Assembly (NCBI GenBank): GCA_029204225.1
Contig: CM055105.1
Span: 50,544,745 to 50,608,744 of the forward strand
DNA length: 64,000 nucleotides
Origin: Diphasiastrum complanatum
Taxonomy: Eukaryota > Streptophyta > Lycopodiopsida > Lycopodiales > Lycopodiaceae
Direction of reading: 5' to 3'
Made by a program: the position numbers and the translations under genes
Notes under the pieces: model-generated
The model's database searches: none
Seen by the model: the letters and a program-made list of their open reading frames with translations, nothing else
What the model was told of the DNA's origin: nothing
Shown here: piece by piece, positions 453 through 22,930 of the stretch
Position numbering within the stretch: the first letter of the stretch is position 1
Layout: each line of letters begins with the position of its first letter

Positions 453-3400
453 ATCCTGCAAACACTGCAGCAACTCAAGCCAGCAAGGAGGAAGCAGATG
501 CACGCTCTGTCTTTGTTGGCAATGTACGATCTCTAGTAGTATCATACTCTTTATCAGCTGTACTCGTTGGAACCTTGCATTCTTGCAGTAGAAGTCCCTG
601 TTTATCCTTTCAGGGGGTTATTTCTTCAATATAAAAAAGGCATTGTGAATGTGTGTTACATTGTGTTGATCTGGAAACTTTGAATCACCATCGTAAATAA
701 TGTTCTAGTAAGAATTGCATCTCGGAGAATAATAATCTTTAATTCTCATAAAGAAAGGTGCAATGCCCAGTACTTATTTTTTAACTTGCGTGCCCCTTGT
801 CAGGTGGATTATTCTTGCACTCCTGAAGAAGTTCAACAACATTTCCAGTCGTGTGGGACAGTTAATCGTGTCACCATTTTAACCGACAAATTTGGGCAGC
901 CAAAGGGGTCAGTTTCTAGACATTCTTGTCAATTGCTACAGTTGAGGTTGCAAGTTCAGTGTCCAGAGAGCTTGTTTTCAGTTGGCCGGATTTGGCTGCC
1001 ACTGACTTCCTCCAATTGTTGAATTGGACTGATCGACATTCTGTTTGCTCGATAATTTGGCACAGATATGCTTATGTTGAATTTCTTGAAGCTGAAGCAG
1101 TTCAGAATGCCATTCTACTGAGTGAATCAGAATTACATGGTCGGCAGTTGAAGGTAAAAATACAATCTAAACTGTGATTTTAGTATTGTACTTTGTTAGC
1201 ATATGCAAGATATGTTAGACATATTCATTTTTGAACCATCTGCTTCCATTTAGTAGAGATGATATTGAAAAGCGAAAATTAAGGTAATATGTAACAAGGA
1301 TTTTAGTCAGGGATCGATATGAAGGGAAGGAGTCCGTGCCAAATGTCTAGAAAACCCTATCGCAGAAGAATATGTGCCATGCATAGTACACATGACTTAT
1401 TTATGAGATGAATATCTATATACATAGTCAATTTTGGCTTTAACTGAGGTCAACTGTCATATTTAGAGGAATTTGTGCTCAGATACAAAAAGACCCAACT
1501 ATCTAAAAATTGAGCTCTCTGAAAGCAGGTGGGCTTTTTAATAGTTAACGAGTGCTTCTTGGTATTATCAACCCATAGAATCAGGTGGTACCGCCCTTAG
1601 ATCCGCGGTACCAAGGCGACACCAATAAATAATATATTTTTTTATTATTATTTTCTTAAATTTTCTAATAAAACCCCCTTTCATTAACGTAAATTAGGGT
1701 AAAAAATTCTTTAAAAGAAGGTTTAGGGTTTAGAAAAAAGGGGGGACTGTACAGGGGGCACTGTGGGGGAGCAGACCTTGGGGTCAATGGGAGTGCAGCA
1801 TGTGGGGGAGCAACAAATCCGGACAGGTACACCGTCACATGAGCACTGTGGGGGAGCAGACCACGGACCCAATCGGAGTGCAGCACGTGGGGGAGCAACA
1901 CATGGGGGCAGGTACAATAGCACATGGGCATTGTGGGGAAGCAGGCCATGGGGCCAATGGGAGTGCAGCACGTGGGGGAGCAACAAATGGGGGCAGGTAC
2001 AACGGCACATGGAGGGATCATCAACAAAAACAGGCAATGGTGTTAAATAGGCACTCACGAGGCTGTGAGAGAGCCAGTGAGAGGTTGAGAGCCAGTTTGA
2101 GAAACAGGGTGTCGTGAGATGGTGGAGCGCATACCACCAAAGCCCGAGGGCGAAGGCAGGAGGAAGCAAGAGGCAGACATTGCAGAGATGCTGTGACAGA
2201 CTCGGCAGAGACACCCAGAGCTGCAAATCCCCGCCCCTGATGTGGCCCCTGCCCTCGCTGTCGAGCTGGATTTGGATGAGCAGATCGGAATGAACTTCAC
2301 ACAATGGCAGCTCATCATGGTCAGGAAAAGGGCGGCCCGCCGTCGGGCTATCCAGGAGGCAGATCGGGCTAACCGGGAGGCAGAGCGAGAGTGACAGAAC
2401 AATGCACCTGATGAGGGCGAGGAGTATTCGTAGGAATGTTTAGAGCCGTATGTGGCTGACCGTTGTTATGTAGTTTTCGGCAGCAGATGAGGCAACATTT
2501 AGTGTTTAACACAGTGTAAAGAACAGCCCCAGCCGTATATGGCGGGATACGTATTGTTATTTTGATACAACTGTTGAATTAATGTTCAGTGTGTTTTTTG
2601 TGCAACGCGTGCTTGGGAAATTGCAATGTAATATATGTGTTTATGAAATGCTATCAAGGGGGGTGTATTTCTGGGAAGTGCATCTGCTATCAATCTCTGC
2701 AGTTGAAACTAATTGAAAATACGATTCAAACACACACATACCATTCGAAACATACCATTCGAAATAAAATTGAAAACAGAGCATCACATTTACAAATCGA
2801 CAAATACACAATGTGCAGCAAATAAAGTACGTCCAACAATGTATATAATATGTAAAATGGTCTGAATATAGTGTACGACCATCTGGCCGCCAAACATGGA
2901 ACATGATATCAAACTGCTAAAAATAAAATAACAGAGCTACAATCAATGTTCTGGCTCTGACTCAGACGAATGCTCCGGAGACAACTCAGGGCCCCGAGCT
3001 GACTCTCGCAACCGATATCTATGCTTGTTTGGTATTGGCATGGGCTGTGTATCCGAGGAGGAGGGCTCGTCATCCACATCCTCCCAATCAGCCTCCACAT
3101 CAGCCCCCAAGAAAGCCAAACCGACTAGACCTGCTACAACTGGCTGTGATAGTGCACCTCTACATGCACCTGGGGCCCTGCAAGGTTGTCCTCTCTTCCC
3201 TGGCGGTTTCTGTGCTCTGCCTTTTTTGTTCGGTGCACCCTTGGGCCTTCCTGGTCTCTTGCGGACGAGGGGAGCTGTCAATGCCTCATCACCCCCATGC
3301 AGATCACCTGGTTGGCTAGGCTGGGCCCAAGCTGAGGCCGGCTGGGATAGAGAAGCCAAAGAGGGGTGTCCCTGTGCAGTTCATAGAGGAGGATGAGCCT

Positions 3401-6400
3401 GTAGAGTGTGTGCCTGTGGGGCTGCTGTTGGTGGAGGAACTGGCTGTGGAGGGGCCGTCCCTACAAGAGGAAAGTACAACGACGATATGTACTGAAAGGG
3501 GCGCTGTGGTGGCCGGTACTGGTACATCCTGGGTGCTGCCAAAGGAGGAACCAATGGAGTGGGTGCTGCCAGAGGAGGAGGATGTGACGTGGGTGCTGCC
3601 ACTGGAGGAGCCACTGTGGATGTGGGCGCCGCAAGAGAAAACCTAGGCACAGATGGTGGCCTGCCATGGAGACCTGGTGCTGCAGAAGTGGATGGCGATG
3701 GAGGGGCTGCAGGCCTCAATGGCATCGGTGGCACTGGAGGTGCTGTGTGGCGCATATGAACCCTCTGAGGAACCGCAAGCACCTCATGTAGCTGCTCTGG
3801 CTGAGACTTTGTGTAGGGCATGCTGGCTAGAGAGGATGGGGGCGCCTTGACGCTCGACATCTGTTGGGCCTCTGAATCCAACGTGGCAATCAAGTCGTCC
3901 AGCTGGGCATCCGGATACAAATGCTCTGGGCTCTGGGACTCATCATGTGCACCATCCTCTGGATCATCCCGTGCCTCATCCTGTGCACCATGTGGACCCT
4001 GCATGGCCTCCCAATCGGTACAATCAAAGTCATCTGGTGTGCTGTTGTAGTAATGCCCCTGACAGCCTGTTTCTTCGCCTCGTGTGAATGAGTGCCCATG
4101 TGCTCCAATTACGCTCACACACGGAGGCAGCGCAATCCTGTGGTACGTGCAATGAAATGCTTCAACACATGTGCAACGAAACACAATGGAGGATGAAATG
4201 AGATGCATACCTGAGAAAGGACACGCAGTGCAAGACGCTGTATGGATGGATAGGTGCTACCGAACATGGTCCACTAGGTAATGGGAAGCTGCCTCCTCTC
4301 CGGATCCTAAGCAGCCGGGTGGCCGAACGTGCCCATGCCGAAACGAAATGCAACTAGCTCCTCCATGAGCCTGATAGGATCCAAACCAATGTGTGGACCC
4401 ACCCTGTGAATGTACTCAAGCCAATCTGCCTCGAGCTCCCTGTCTGCGATCTGTGTCGGAGAGAGGAAGAGGGGATGCAGTATGTGTGCAACGTTGTGGA
4501 TACTCCTGTGGAAGTAGTTCCACCGCGTCTCCCAGATGAACTTCAGCTCGGTCATCCTGCAGGTGAGAGGCATGTGGTTTAGGGCATTACGGAAAAACGT
4601 AACATCGACAAAAAAACAAACTAGCAACTACTGAAAAGATAAAGACCAATTACATTACTATACTGCTTACCTCTCTGGCTGCAAGATGGGCAGCTGCAGG
4701 AATTGTCCAATCTGGTCCATGAGCTCATACACCAATCCAAGTGTCGACCCCTCGTTGTCAGCCATGCGGAGCACAATGTAGAGTGGTCGAAGGAGTCCTG
4801 ACAATGTCTGTGCATCCCTCTAGAACTGGTCTCCCCTCACCGTGGAAGAAAAGTGCTCCCCATTCTCTGTGTGCTGAAACGTACTGGCACGCCAAAGATC
4901 ACTGACAACCATTTGTAGAAGCTGCGCCCTACACCTGATCAAACGGTCGATGACCACCAAGTCGAATGCAAAACGTGTGGGGCTGGCTTATGGAGGTCCA
5001 GATGGCTGAACACCCGGAACATGGCAAGAACATACCTCTTCTTGGTGACAAAAGTCACCAGGAAGAGGGCCTCACAGACGATGGCTCTAACCCAGGGAAG
5101 TGCACCTATGTCCCCCATCAGAAGGTCTATGCCGTGCGTTGCATAGGGGGTATGAACGATGTGAGGGAACTTGGCCTCTAGCAGTACACCCACTTGAATG
5201 TAGCTGGTGGCATTGTCCGTCACCACCGTGACGACATGCCGTGGGCCTATGGACAGGATGGAAGACCTGATGACATCAAACATGAACTCTGCAGATATGA
5301 CTCTCCCCCCCTGCTGCAATCCACGGCCCTCAAAAACTGTGTGCCCATGCAGCTGGAGACCAAGATGTTGAGGATCAGCCTCCTCCTGACATCAGTCCAG
5401 CCATCGGACATGATGCTGCAATCGTAAGTGGCCCAGTGGCGACGTAGAGGCTCCATCTCTCTAGACAAGGACTCGACCCTATCCCTTAGCATGTGTGTGC
5501 GGACAACCTCTGAACTAGGGACTCTCCAGCTAGGGCTGACAGACTGTGCAAGGCGGAAGGCCCTTTTGAAGGGCTCAGAGTCGGTGATGGCAAATGGAAG
5601 GTTCAGCTCATAAATCAGACTGGCCACGGCCTATGTGGCCTCTCTGTCCATGTGCGGCTGATGCGCGCCGCGAATACTCTGCTGCCTAAGAACTCTCCCA
5701 GCACGGGTAGCGGACCTCCAGCACGGTGCACCAACCGTGACGGGAATGGATGATGACGCGACAGGCTGGGCACTAGTGGATGCATCGGCTGTAGACGTGG
5801 AATGGGGAGAGTGGGATGCATTGGCAGGGATGGGTGCAGCAGCATAAGTGGGGTGCACTGGTGGAGGGGCGACATCTGGCATGAGATACGAAAACTGTTG
5901 GCTAGGGAGGTCATCCGGATGGGAAGGGAGGGAGAAAGGGATCTCCTCAACATTCTCGAAGGCCTCGTCACCAGCATCTTGGGCTTGCTCGGGTGGCGGA
6001 GAGTCCATGAGAAAGTCGTAGACTGGGGGAGTGCGAGCAATAGGACGTGGTGCTGGAATGGCAGTGGCAATTGGTGGACGTAAGGGGATGGGTTCCATCG
6101 GAATGGGCGCAGATGGGGGTGCGTGTGGCGGAACTGTCTGAGGGGGATGAGGGGCAGTGGGACTGGACGAGGATGCACTCCCTCTCCTCGTGCGTGCCAG
6201 CCAAGCAGGCAGCAACTCGGGGTCAACCACGTAAGGAGCGGTGCAAAACTGGAGAAAACCCTCCGAAATGGTGTTCTACCCCGCCACAAGACGTGGCCCA
6301 TAGGTGTGCAGAAGTCGCTGCCTGACGGGGACGGACATGCTGCCACAAGGGGCAGCATTAAGTGTGCCACCATTTTTGGCGCGTGCACCGAGCAGGTGGC

Positions 6401-13300: not shown

Positions 13301-15930
13301 TGCCATCCACTAGCTGTGACTACTTCGAGGCTGAATTTGGTCCATTTTGATCAACACGCGAAAAATTGTGGGGCTGTCAAAAGCCTCATCACTTACATGT
13401 TTGGAGCTGCTGTGCCAAAATCTTCACATGCTCCAGTTTCTCGAACTAAACCTTGCTGATGATATTCTGTGCCTCTGTTGGTCTTACTTTAATGTACATC
13501 TTGGGGCTCTCTGGAACTAGGAATCGATACTACACTTTTGGACATTTTTGACCAATATTTTGGTACATTTTGGTTTCTGCGCTGAAAGGAAATCTGTACA
13601 TCATGTTTCATCATAGTAACACAACATTGTATGTTCATTTCACCTTCTAGATTACCCATGCTATCATCCTTGGAGTCACGACTATATTCTGTAGGAATCA
13701 GATCACCATGTGCATGTAATTTTTTGTTGAATCGAGCAGTATTTACTTGACCGAATGAAATTAGAAGCAATTTAATGCATAATAGCAAAACCATTTTCTA
13801 ACATCACTAATATGATTGCTATAGCTAACTTGCAGACCCATATGATTAAACCTAAGAATACATACATTACAATATATCACACTACACTACATTACATGGA
13901 TTGCATTAAAAATCGCGTGGGATCAGCTTGGCAATTGCTTTGTCATGGAATGACATCAGGGTGACATTGCATTGGAATGACATTCCACTCCATTGGGTAT
14001 GGCATGACATGGAGTTGATAGCATTGCAAAGGCAACTCATTCTATTGCATATTAGTTACATGTTTGTCCAAGATTATCTTTTGATGCAAATCCTTTGCCT
14101 ATAAGAATTGAAGCTCACATGTAGATCATTTAAAGTCCTAAGAAACATTCCCACCAACAGATTGAACCTTAGAACCTTAGCCTGTGGGCCCTAGTGTTTT
14201 GTGATTTATTGCGTTGTTTTATGTTGTTGGTAAATATATGAATTAAAGTGAAATACAATGAACTTATGGTTTGAAGTGGGACTTATTGACTTAGGAGGAT
14301 TTTTATATATTCTTTGGTCTTCTACTCATTTTCTTGTGACAATGACACTTTGTTTTGGCTTGATTCAAAGTCTTAAATGTAGTGGGGTCTTGATGGTGTC
14401 TCACTTGTGACCAAGCGGTCAATATCTAATAAAAGAATGTGCAATGTTAGCATCTTTGTCCAAATAAGGCTCAGTGAGATCCCTTGGCTTGTCGTAGTGA
14501 GTTGGCCCCATTGTAAATCTTGTTTCACCTCATTGCAGATCTTGGTACTTATCCTATTGTTTAGTCCAAGAAGAATAAGAAAGCATATCTCATTAGGATT
14601 GTCTCAAGTAATCGAAGTCCAAGTGCAGTACGTTGTGTTTTGAAGTTTGTGTTGGATGATTCATGACCATGTGATAAGTAATGGTAGTTGTTTTCAATCT
14701 TTATCCATGTCTTGTTGTAAACTTTAGCTTCAACTCAAGTTTTTAAATCATGCAATTACAAAAAAAAGGGATACCTTTCTATGTTTTTATTGAACATGTT
14801 TTAGGTTTTTGAAAGATATAAGTTTGAAACCAAGGCAATTGGGAGCGAGTGAGTTTTTCACAGGGCTTTCAAAAAACAAAGAGAATGTATTGCGTTGTTG
14901 CTAGGGAAGCTAGAAGGCAATTTGGAGCAAGTGAGTCTTTCACAGGGCTTTTAAAAAACAAAGAGAATGTATTGCGTTGTTGCTAGTGAAGCTAGATAAT
15001 CCCTCATGTACATCAGTTTATAGAGTAGCAATTTGAATAACAAGAATCTATATTGGTTTCCAAAACTCATCAAATTTGAGTATTTAGTTCACATTCAAGT
15101 ATTTTGAATGTAGTGGTAGTCTAAATAACATCGATTTATCTTGGTTTTTTTTAACTCTCATGAAGTTGGAAGTATCAATTTCATGTTACAAAGCAAAAAA
15201 AAATTAGGTTTATTTTTTTCGACACCATTAGTCTATCAAGCTCAATTTTATTCAAATTGTAGTTGGTTAAGAATCTATTACTTTGGAAGGAATTTTAAAG
15301 AGGATTGGAGTTTATAGATGACTTAATTGTTGAACAAGCTACTAAAGTTTTAAAATTCATTTCTAAGAGATATTTCAACCAGTCGATTGAAGCATGAGAC
15401 AAAAATTTAGATGCCAGAAGAAGATTTTGGAAAGAAGAAAAAGTGGCATGTGTTTGATAAATTATAGTAAACTCAAGTTGAGACAATGCTCAACTTACAG
15501 TTTATTTCTTGTACGAGTGCTTAAAGTAAACCAATGAAAATCATGTGTCTTGAAAAAAACTTAAATGTGTTACATGTGAATGAGTTCTCAAGAAACTAAG
15601 CCTATGTGATACCACTTATGCCTCAAAACACTCATGATCGAATGCTTTTTTTCTTTTTCTTGTCTTTATTGTCAGTTTGGGAAACATGAAGTTGGAATTC
15701 CAACATGTCATAAGAGGTTACATTACATCAGCATTTAGAAAGCAAGATGTAATATGATATTAAATAATGCAAAATATTTTGAGATGGAACAATATCCTAA
15801 AAAATGGGTAATGATTTTTTGATTTTTTAATTTTTGCCAAAAAAATGTATTTTCATATATTTTTTTTTTGAAAATCACAATTTTGTTTGCAAACAATATG
15901 CTCTTTAGCAAAAAAAAAAACCTTCTAAAA
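10388..15930. other. Long stretch without a recognised gene
   Basis: The start is the 3' UTR/downstream flank of the poly(A)-binding protein gene. I see only short frames with no domain. Local features are a run of related TGGAATGACAT words near 13945-14010 and a tandem duplication at 14834-15000. A moderately open plus-strand region at 13088-13459 shows no motif I know. Confidence 0.5.
14834..15000. repeat. Tandem duplication, two units of about 83 bp
   Basis: GGCAATTGGGAGCGAGTGAG at 14834 recurs as GGCAATTTGGAGCAAGTGAG about 83 bases later. Both units continue with the same CACAGGGCTT and ATTGCGTTGTTGCTAG blocks. The few differences point to a fairly recent duplication. Confidence 0.85.
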
Positions 15931-15932
15931 TG

Positions 15933-16095
15933 AATTTTTTTTGTAATAAAATCTTAAAATTAAAAATGCTCAAAATAAGCAAAATATACATACATTTATG
16001 GTGTTTTGAATGTCTTAATCGACGTTCATGAAAATAACTCGTAGAATACATTTGAAGCCAGTTACACTAAATCCACAAATTTTGAAAACACTGAA

Positions 16096-16139
<44 letters not shown>

Positions 16140-16368
16140 TAGTTCCAAGTGCATTTGTACGGCACTTGTACAGCACACATTTTTTTTGTAATAAAATTTT
16201 AAAAATAAAAAATGTTCAAAATAAACAAAATATACATACATTTATGGTGTTCTGAATGTCTAAATTGACTTTCATGAAAATAACTCGCAGAATACATTTG
16301 AAGCCAGTTACAGTAAATCCACAAATTTTGAAAACACTGAAAATAATATATATATATATATACACGAG
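15933..16368. repeat. Direct duplication of about 175 bp, each ending in an AT microsatellite
   Basis: Copy 1 (about 15933-16110) and copy 2 (about 16179-16355) share TTGTAATAAAAT, AAAATATACATACATTTATGG, TTCATGAAAATAACTCG and TTGAAGCCAGTTACA. Each runs into (TA)n, 36 bases long after copy 1 and about 20 after copy 2. Confidence 0.85.
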
Positions 16369-21260: not shown

Positions 21261-21972
21261 CAAGTCTTATTGAGTTACTATCATCATTTGTGTTGAGAAA
21301 ATCTTCTAAGTGTTTATGATCACATTTTGTCGAGTTGTCATAATGTTATCACAAAACAACTGCACAACTTTTAATAGCTTATTTACATTTTAAACCATCA
21401 AGAAAATGAGATAGGAACACGAAATCTTATGAAACGAGAAATGGCATAAGACCCAATTTTTCTTTTTTGTGAACTTAGAATTTTTTGAAATTCAAGTAAT
21501 TTTTTAATCCTAAATTTAGAAAATTCGTTATTTTGCAAGATCATATATTTTGCAAATATTTAAAATTTAGACGAAATATTGCAAAATATTTTTAAAATTT
21601 TATACTAAACTGGCTCAAAAAATAAAAATATCATTTGTGTGCAATTTGTTATTATGAAAAGTAGTTGTTAAATTGAACAAGCGATTGTAAAATTTTAAAA
21701 ATTATTTTTTTAAGTAAAAGATAACAAAAAACACTTTAAGATAAATTTGATAACCTGTTTATAATTTGATATTTGTATTTTAAAAATCAAGTAAACTAAA
21801 CAAATCTAGTATTCAAAAAATATGCTAAATTTCTAACAAATATTATTTAACAATAAAATCATTTACCAAAAAGATAATTAAAAACATCTAAGAAATAAAC
21901 ATTTTGTACATCAATACAATAATCTTTTGAATAAAAGATATTTCTTTAAAAATAAAATTTTGTTGAGTGTTT

Positions 21973-22930
21973 TCAATTACATAGTCTCAAATTTTCATAC
22001 AATAAAAAATTCTCAATCAGATCATTTGGATTTGGAGAAGCAACCCTTCCAATCTTTGTGTCTGTTGAAGGTGTTGTCCCGTCCTGAATAGCAATTTTTT
22101 CAATCACTTTATAGCTTTGCTCAACCACCTCGGCCAGTTCTCCTTCATTACCAACAACACCACTGATAGGTGGTTGAGGCTCCTTAACAAATGGAGCGAT
22201 ACCGTCCTCAAAGGGGCCCAACTTACCAACCTCTTGAAACTCATCAGACAAAACTGAAATACCAACTAGCCTCATCTTTACAAAATTTACTAAACTCTCA
22301 TCTAATTCTATGGCCACAACATGACTGCCCTTTTGGACAACACATGCACTAGTAGTGCCACTACCACTAAATAAATCTAAAATCCAATCTGCGGGATGAG
22401 AAAACATTTCAATTGATTTATTTACAAGTTGTTGTGGCTTTTGATATGGACAAGCCACATAACCAATCATCGAATTTTTAAGTTTTTTTGTCACTGTAGG
22501 AAAATTAAAATGATTTCCAAAATCTGTGTTCACTGTAGTGTTGTAGTGCAACATGGATCTCTTTCCATCGGTAGGGAAGTAACTGATGCTGAGATATCCG
22601 ATCTCATTACAGAGATGTGCACACCACCAGAATTGCACACATTTGGCTTGTACCTACAAACATTGAAAGCAAATAGTCAAAAAACCAAATAACATAACAT
22701 GTTTAAAATATCAAAAAGACTTGTAAATATATATGTTTAATTACAATCAGTACTTACCAAATGACATTCTCTATTCCTATATTGCATACTTCTAATAGGG
22801 CCTTATGAACACCTACTTGTTGCCAACTGAAGTGAAATATCACTATCCTCCAAAGCGAAGCTGTAGTGATCTCCAAGAAACCAGCAACAACATCTTTCAC
22901 TTCTGTCAACAAATTCCTCGGTGCGTGCAC
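21973..22930 (-). pseudogene. DNA methyltransferase of the N4-cytosine/N6-adenine (beta-class) family, truncated and frameshifted
   Basis: Transfers methyl from S-adenosylmethionine to DNA bases (family knowledge). Two exons are readable on the minus strand. Exon a (about 22930-22758) ends ...LWRIVIFHFSWQQVGVHKAL, then IENVIW, and donor GTAAGT. Exon b (22653-21973) opens YKPN after acceptor TTTGTAG, changes frame near 22630, then runs 216 codons to the stop: GYLSISYFPTDGKRSMLHYN, YQKPQQLVNKSIEMFSHPAD (motif X-like), WILDLFSGSGTTSACV (AdoMet motif I), SHVVAIELDESL (motif II). Order and motifs fit beta-class enzymes, in which the catalytic S/DPPY (motif IV) lies N-terminal; that part is not visible, and a putative LTR lies directly upstream. 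The C-terminal 90 residues match nothing I know. Splicing in phase gives the YKPN frame, so one 1-base indel is needed: probably a pseudogene or a diverged copy. A relative of plant DN4MT is possible but unproven. Confidence 0.75.

What the first reader, a model, noticed from the sequence alone, without database searches (positions are those of the whole stretch)
21973..22930. Bacterial-type beta-class DNA methyltransferase (N4C/N6A) locus in a plant genome
Two exons carry FHFSWQQ, IENVIWYKPN, a motif-X-like QKPQQLVNKSIEMFS, motif I DLFSGSGTTS and motif II AIELDE in the beta-class order, quite unlike plant cytosine-5 methyltransferases or MT-A70 proteins. N4-cytosine methyltransferases are known in some land plants (Marchantia DN4MT) and in bdelloid rotifers. 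This copy has an intron, so it is not a contaminant. It is followed by about 90 unexplained residues, needs one frame correction near 22630, and lacks motif IV here. Whether a full copy exists elsewhere in the genome is the key question.
Basis: partly seen in the sequence, partly recalled or inferred. Interest (0 to 1): 0.78.

Follow-up and report, generated by a model that had tools for sequence, protein, structure and literature searches.

The report
Transposon remnant carrying a DNA methyltransferase
The sequence is not a plant methyltransferase gene but the broken end of an old jumping element, present in many copies in this genome, that carries its own bacterial-type DNA methyltransferase next to its transposase gene, as was recently reported for elements in algae.

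Summary
In detail: window 21973-22653(-) matches Pfam N6_N4_Mtase (E 6.8e-14), with motifs X, I and II in beta-class order and a GT-AG intron. The reading as a plant DN4MT-like gene does not. In the window's own 1.745-Gb genome the domain is massively repeated (1605 candidates; all 150 scored exceed the cut-off). The window copy is a 1.5-kb relic (21416-22906): broken upstream at 22906, ending downstream at an 18-bp terminal inverted repeat that occurs 121 times in the genome, against 1 for a reversed-pattern control.

Other copies supply the missing motif IV (mostly DIPYG or near variants), a ParB-looking domain, and a second gene on the opposite strand; a diverged relative of that gene matches Pfam DUF7869, read here as the transposase core. 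Of 150 places of that gene, 15 lie within 20 kb of a methyltransferase place, all 15 on the opposite strand. Between subfamilies the methyltransferase exon shows dN/dS 0.19 (0.9-1.2 in shifted frames), so it was probably needed while the element was active.

Closest known: ParB-methyltransferase accessory genes of algal transposons (Ectocarpus Sola1-1). This looks like a land-plant member. Weak points: the ParB label failed every sequence test, no intact copy was seen, and activity is untested.

The parts
21416..22906 (-). right-hand (methyltransferase-side) 1.5-kb fragment of a DNA transposon; unrelated sequence begins on either side
   Evidence: blastn of the window against fetched copies: homology starts at 22906 in most and ends at 21416 in many, with unrelated flanks
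21417..21434 (+). right terminal inverted repeat, ACACGAAATCTTATGAAA on the + strand
   Evidence: genome-wide pattern count 61 forward + 60 reverse against 1 + 0 for the control
21973..22653 (-). last coding exon region: C-terminal half of the methyltransferase domain plus a tail shared with other copies
   Evidence: PF01555 E 6.8e-14
22399..22455 (-). motif X (ACPYQKPQQLVNKSIEMFS)
22348..22383 (-). motif I (ILDLFSGSGTTS), S-adenosylmethionine-binding loop (role from general knowledge)
22297..22320 (-). motif II (VVAIELDE)
22654..22757 (-). intron, GT..AG, 104 bp; same splice site in copy L004
22758..22906 (-). remnant of the preceding exon (TEVKDVVAGF ... IFHFSWQQ ... IENVI)
   Evidence: broken at 22906, where other copies continue into motif IV
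15772..16361 (+). separate fragment(s) of the opposite, transposase-side end of the same family, terminal repeat degraded, doubled (about 15772-16115 and 16208-16361)
   Evidence: blastn of L029, L039 and L060 left ends against the window; sequence read

Best explanation
The locus is a dead, 5'-broken copy of a DNA transposon. Shown: the family has about 18-bp terminal inverted repeats and two genes facing away from each other. One gene belongs to a family that has a DUF7869 core, read here as a DDE-type transposase. The other is an intron-containing protein that ends in a beta-class DNA methyltransferase (order IV - X - I - II, motif IV DIPYG). Inferred: a ParB-looking domain before the methyltransferase binds the element's own DNA, and the methyltransferase puts N6-methyladenine or N4-methylcytosine on it. 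That self-mark would help the element, either by keeping its chromatin open against the plant's 5mC silencing or by tuning transposase action at the ends. The element would move by cut-and-paste, making a 4-bp target duplication, and the window copy is a relic of it.
For: Copy number: PF01555 1605 candidates, 150 scored, all over the cut-off; window DNA 1326 candidates, 40 scored, 81-91% identical apart from the window itself and one 96% piece of 100 bp. Ends: the same 3' terminus at 15 of 29 distinct fetched places with unrelated flanks; terminal repeat 121 exact copies against 1 control; L060 and L029 homology starts exactly at the left repeat; C12:7058093-7069999 is bracketed by both repeats and has AATA on both sides. 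Transposase: L066 hits DUF7869 E 6.5e-38; 2954 DUF7869 candidates in this genome, none of 14 control prokaryotes; 8 of 150 DUF7869 places lie within 6 kb of a place of the divergent gene's N-terminus, all 8 on the same strand about 1.0-1.1 kb downstream, and C8:59803893-59809845 shows methyltransferase, divergent N-terminus and DUF7869 in order. Pairing: 15 of 150 divergent-gene places within 20 kb of one of 177 methyltransferase places, all 15 opposite strand, 13 divergent, 12 of 150 PF01555 places paired, against a random mean of 0.5. Selection: median dN/dS 0.19 between subfamilies in frame, 0.89 and 1.21 in shifted frames. Precedent: Ectocarpus Sola1-1 (PMC12477816, passages).
Against: The ParB label has no sequence support: no hit for the 8-copy alignment in PDB, none in NCBIfam and no ParB model in Pfam, phage tblastn nothing better than E 9, hhalign E 0.13 and 0.51, shuffle test z 1.3 and 0.4. 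DUF7869 was seen in L066, a relative only 49% identical to the query and without a listed methyltransferase within 20 kb; in the window's own subfamily the core was not seen (L060 looks internally deleted there, the L018 stretch ends before it). Two copies with both ends (L029, L039) show no target duplication (by eye). In the C12 copy the methyltransferase stretch itself was not read. 14 of 29 distinct places show no such 3' end: cut short, diverged (L020 and L037 match weakly) or not fetched that far. Copy counts are candidate counts. 2 of the 15 pairs (a C6 cluster) have the nearest partner downstream, and one of four DUF7869 places near a methyltransferase (C15) lies downstream on the same strand. 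Within the window's subfamily dN/dS is 0.66 in frame and 0.48-0.54 in shifted frames, so no constraint is seen there. No intact copy seen; no expression or methylation data.
Confidence: 0.84

Rival explanations
1. A host gene: a horizontally acquired N4C/N6A methyltransferase like Marchantia DN4MT or rotifer N4CMT, working on the plant genome.
For: PF01555 hit, introns, precedent in Marchantia and Adineta (PMC8885841 passages; PMC12344493 passages; PMC10952607 passages).
Against: Very many dispersed, decayed copies, half of the distinct ones read sharing one terminus; terminal inverted repeats; recurrent divergent partner gene.
Confidence: 0.04
2. Pack-type capture: an unrelated transposon picked up a host or microbial methyltransferase gene and spread it passively.
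For: Some copies are internally deleted and keep both ends plus part of the methyltransferase (L039, L029); such derivatives would look like capture.
Against: The methyltransferase is present in several deeply diverged subfamilies (dS about 1-2, up to 3) with frame-specific constraint, and the two-gene divergent layout recurs. A passive passenger should not be under purifying selection.
Confidence: 0.09
3. Remnants of an endogenous DNA virus, or prophage-like contamination.
For: ParB plus N6_N4_Mtase fusions are typical of phages (PMC12704722 passages; AcaML1 Gp25 has both Pfam domains).
Against: Introns, chromosomal dispersal, short inverted repeats, no close relative in viral contigs or prokaryote genome contigs; phage relatives in the listings about 29-40% identical. 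I did not search for virus hallmark genes.
Confidence: 0.03

Closest known systems
Sola1-1_Ec32, 21.5-kb DNA transposon of Ectocarpus (PMC12477816; passages seen)
   Same: Methyltransferase gene on the strand opposite to the transposase; methyltransferase of the N4C/N6A type; a ParB-like domain in the same protein (assigned by its authors; here only by eye).
   Different: Host is a brown alga, element 21.5 kb, protein 1104 aa; here a probable land plant, one copy with both ends 11.9 kb including a nested stretch of another repeat, very high copy number. Sequences were not compared; whether DUF7869 is the Sola1 transposase core was not tested.
ParB-methyltransferase proteins of green and red algal transposons (cited in PMC12477816 as its references 50 and 51; neither was read; reference 51 is not held, reference 50 was not looked up)
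   Same: ParB-like plus methyltransferase carried by transposons.
   Different: Known to me only through that citation; no comparison possible.
Phage ParB_N - N6_N4_Mtase fusions, e.g. Acidithiobacillus phage AcaML1 Gp25
   Same: Same order of domains; methyltransferase part homologous (29.9% identity over query residues 26-138, E 4e-4).
   Different: No significant similarity in the ParB part; an annotated phage gene of one piece, no transposase partner among the nine features of the stretch seen.
Marchantia DN4MT and rotifer N4CMT
   Different: Those are functioning host genes; this is a decayed transposon gene. No sequence comparison was made.

Membership tests
beta-class N6A/N4C DNA methyltransferase (PF01555) | significant profile match | tested here: met
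   E 6.8e-14 for the window exon, 8.4e-16 for L004
beta-class N6A/N4C DNA methyltransferase (PF01555) | motif order IV - X - I - II with (D/N/S)PP(Y/F/W) at motif IV (rule recalled) | tested here: inconclusive
   order met across copies; motif IV is DIPYG in 7 of 17 distinct places that give a reading, near variants in the other 10, never DPPY, and is missing from the window copy
beta-class N6A/N4C DNA methyltransferase (PF01555) | methylates DNA | not testable with these tools
   needs a biochemical or methylome test
TIR DNA transposon | terminal inverted repeats shared by dispersed copies | tested here: met
TIR DNA transposon | target-site duplication | tested here: inconclusive
   4-bp AATA at C12:7058093-7069999; none in L029 and L039, read by eye: 1 of 3 copies with both ends
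TIR DNA transposon | encodes a transposase | tested here: inconclusive
   divergent gene of a family with a DUF7869 core; Pfam calls it unknown function, so the transposase reading is mine (recalled resemblance plus position)
Sola1 superfamily | Sola1 transposase | not tested
   no Sola1 sequence was at hand; the defining paper is not held; the 4-bp duplication fits what I recall of Sola
ParB/Srx (ParB-CTPase) fold | significant similarity to ParB_N | tested here: not met
   resemblance by eye only
plant DN4MT-type host gene | low-copy functional gene not inside a mobile element | tested here: not met

The most novel reading that the evidence does not exclude
Transposons that carry their own DNA methyltransferase have long lived in land plants, mark their own DNA with a non-5mC modification against host silencing, and are the source from which host enzymes such as Marchantia DN4MT were domesticated, instead of a direct gift from bacteria.
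Probability: 0.1. Interest if true: 0.85.

Novelty: new member of a known kind. Interest (0 to 1): 0.52.

Why it matters
It turns a suspected host epigenetic enzyme into a transposon-borne one, and extends methyltransferase-carrying transposons from algae to what is very probably a land plant, in very high copy number. Frame-specific constraint on the methyltransferase suggests that the elements needed it, which makes self-methylation by a transposon testable with long-read base-modification data. It also warns that PF01555 hits in plant genomes should be checked for transposon ends before being called DN4MT genes.

Tried and rejected
Helitron: no Helitron-type 3' end, and the base after the common end GTGTT varies. 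Retrocopy: rejected because the intron is kept. Early idea that 22906 or L043:1613 was the element's 5' end: both are breakpoints of single copies; the sequence 5' of L043:1613 is a different repeat. ParB assignment by profile, hhalign, tblastn and shuffle test: all failed. Phage proteins looked at as possible ParB fusions: four only in annotation, two scanned, of which Amgine gp37 shows no ParB domain and AcaML1 Gp25 does. Close relatives in viral contigs and prokaryote genome contigs: none. PMC8226300 holds none of the terms sought. Literature: ten searches; no title listed names such an element in a land plant, but only the top of each list was seen and only open-licence PMC papers are held.

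Full report
WHAT WAS CHECKED. The minus-strand frame 21973-22653 is open for 226 codons and matches Pfam N6_N4_Mtase at E 6.8e-14, but only profile positions 134-218 of 221, the C-terminal half. NCBIfam gives adenine-specific methyltransferase models (PRK11524 E 4.7e-11, CcrM E 9.6e-10), far below their curated cut-offs; the PDB gives RsrI, CcrM and MboIIA; PHROGs gives phage DNA methyltransferases. Motif places and the 104-bp GT-AG intron (22654-22757) are as described; the frame break near 22.63 kb follows from the two frames that carry YKPN and the rest. The upstream exon has no Pfam hit of its own.

IT IS ONE OF A VERY LARGE FAMILY. The window lies in a 1.745-Gb assembly of 5176 contigs. 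PF01555 has 1605 first-look candidates there; the best 150 were scored and all 150 exceed the curated cut-off. The window's own 988 bp finds 1326 candidates, 40 scored; apart from itself they are 81-91% identical, plus one 100-bp piece at 96%. These are candidate counts, not resolved copies, and some pairs are near-identical placed and unplaced contigs. Phage relatives of the L004 last exon number 411 records at E <= 1e-3, all below 60% identity. No close relative was found in prokaryote genome contigs or viral contigs; those scans reach close relatives only. So it is neither a contaminant nor, as far as these collections show, a recent transfer.

THE WINDOW COPY IS BROKEN ON ONE SIDE AND ENDS IN A TERMINUS ON THE OTHER. 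Against the fetched copies, homology begins at 22906 or a few bases inside it in most, and ends at 21416 in many. At 22906 the window copy breaks away while most others run on upstream with sequence reading like DIPYGFKLAGSLNDDRPFKY, which supplies the missing motif IV. Collapsing near-identical loci gives 29 distinct places, and 15 of the 29 stop at the same terminal sequence, followed by unrelated DNA. The other 14 are cut short, diverge earlier or were not fetched that far; L020 and L037 match the end weakly. The inverted form of that end was found at the far side of the element in L060 and L029, exactly where their homology to each other begins, and with one mismatch in L039. The 18-bp repeat ACACGAAATCTTNTGAAA occurs 61 + 60 times in the genome against 1 + 0 for the pattern read backwards. 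C12:7058093-7069999 is bracketed by a left-type and a right-type repeat facing inwards, 11.9 kb apart. It is flanked by AATA on both sides, taking the repeat as AACACG...CGTGTT. It holds the divergent gene and the ParB-looking exons and a stretch shared with another repeat; its methyltransferase stretch was not read. Two other copies with both ends, L029 and L039, are internally deleted and show no target duplication by eye. The 4-bp duplication therefore rests on 1 of 3 copies.

THE ELEMENT HAS TWO DIVERGENT GENES. Beyond a promoter-like stretch with tandem repeats, a second gene runs the other way. Its N-terminal part, taken from L018, finds 2023 candidates in the genome; 150 were scored and all match, from 100% down to about 41% identity. 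One of these read further (L066, C23, 49% identical to the query) hits Pfam DUF7869 at E 6.5e-38. DUF7869 itself has 2954 candidates here, 150 scored and all over the cut-off, and none in 14 prokaryote controls. Of 150 DUF7869 places, 8 lie within 6 kb of a listed place of this gene's N-terminus, all 8 on the same strand, 1.0-1.1 kb downstream. In the window's own subfamily the DUF7869 core was not seen. Of 150 places of this gene, 15 lie within 20 kb of one of 177 distinct methyltransferase places; all 15 are on the opposite strand and 13 are divergent. Two in a C6 cluster have their nearest partner downstream. At least two of the pairs look like duplicate assemblies of one locus (C4822 with C17, C3616 with C20), so independent cases are fewer. 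With PF01555 places alone, 12 of 150 were paired where random placement gave a mean of 0.5. Of four DUF7869 places within 20 kb of a methyltransferase place, three are divergent and one (C15) is downstream on the same strand; C8:59803893-59809845 shows methyltransferase (-), divergent N-terminus (+) and DUF7869 (+) in order. Reading DUF7869 as the transposase core is my inference, from position and from recalled resemblance; Pfam names it unknown, and a paper search for the name found nothing.

THE METHYLTRANSFERASE WAS PROBABLY UNDER SELECTION. For the last exon, median dN/dS between eight copies of the window's subfamily and five copies of three other subfamilies is 0.19 in frame, against 0.89 and 1.21 when the same columns are read in shifted frames (38, 39 and 39 pairs; pairs with under 55 comparable codons or undefined values were dropped). 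dS there is mostly 1-2, up to 3, so the values are rough. Within the window's subfamily the median is 0.66 in frame and 0.48-0.54 shifted (27, 25 and 25 pairs), that is, no visible constraint. L004-L007 gives 1.13 and L006-L008 0.51 (one pair each). This fits elements that needed the enzyme while active and are now mostly dead copies. Pairs share sequences and are not independent.

THE REST OF THE PROTEIN. Upstream of motif IV, copies share a stretch that by eye reads like a ParB N-terminal domain (FFVLGGIHSLQARKEL ... ELTVEEAKLLAWDHNI). It failed every sequence test: PDB, NCBIfam and Pfam with an 8-copy alignment (Pfam gave only three unrelated weak hits), phage tblastn, hhalign against the ParB_N region of phage AcaML1 Gp25 (E 0.13 and 0.51; the aligned block falls in the expected place) and a shuffle test (z 1.3 and 0.4). 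AcaML1 Gp25 itself is a ParB_N plus N6_N4_Mtase fusion, and such fusions are enriched in phages (PMC12704722, passages). So 'ParB-like' is a lead supported by precedent, not a test passed.

HOW IT PROBABLY WORKS. Shown: a mobile element with inverted repeats, a methyltransferase gene under past constraint, and a divergent gene of a DUF7869 family. Inferred: cut-and-paste movement with a 4-bp duplication; the accessory protein binds the element and methylates it at N6-adenine or N4-cytosine. The motif D-x-P-Y leans to adenine by a recalled rule, but that is weak. The likely benefits are open chromatin against 5mC silencing (6mA is enriched in permissive chromatin of unicellular eukaryotes, PMC12695648, passages including part of the abstract) or control of transposase action at the ends.

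COMPARISON WITH WHAT IS KNOWN. The closest match is Ectocarpus Sola1-1_Ec32, a 21.5-kb DNA transposon with a 1104-aa ParB-like plus N4C/N6A methyltransferase protein on the strand opposite to its transposase; [quoted passage not shown] The two works they cite were not read (reference 51 is not held; reference 50 was not looked up). Our element works like that one. Membership in Sola1 was not tested. Ten literature searches listed no title naming such an element in a land plant, but the library is limited and only the top of each list was seen.

HOST. Of ten frames scanned (two of them phage proteins), a copia gag, a reverse transcriptase, a DUF659 protein (hAT-type by recall), an RRM exon and a pectate lyase exon beside copy L060 fit a land plant; three window frames gave nothing.

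VERDICT. Real, well supported as a transposon; the host-gene reading fails; a new, probably land-plant, member of a recently noticed kind of methyltransferase-carrying transposon. After the recount the confidence was lowered slightly, from 0.85 to 0.84, because the DUF7869 core was seen only in a diverged relative of the divergent gene.

Noticed in passing
window 15772-16361: A second, separate fragment of the same transposon family: the transposase-side end, doubled, with a degraded terminal repeat.
   Followed up: partly
L063 about 4300-5000 (gene-sense), L061 about 4040-4650: Promoter-like region between the two divergent genes is built of tandem units of roughly 200-250 bp with a TATTTAAG box; the number seems to vary between copies.
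   Followed up: no
L063 about 5239 onwards (gene-sense), L001, L004, L060, L061: An N-terminal exon of the methyltransferase protein (MTKHMFYFTKGYEGQKLIDLFLW...) shared by subfamilies; no domain known to me, not searched in Pfam.
   Followed up: no
L043:1-1613, and positions 16-190 of the query (L063): Other dispersed repeats that abut copies; the second one is 91-96% identical between listed copies and so probably younger.
   Followed up: no
G000:C22:12333634-12347569 and G000:C6:50520926-50532279: Four methyltransferase places about 4.5 kb apart on C22, and two methyltransferase plus two divergent-gene places on C6: apparently local arrays of the element.
   Followed up: no
window 684-1019 and 4942-5391: An RRM exon near the window start (PABN-like by recall) and a DUF659 (hAT-type by recall) transposon protein.
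   Followed up: partly
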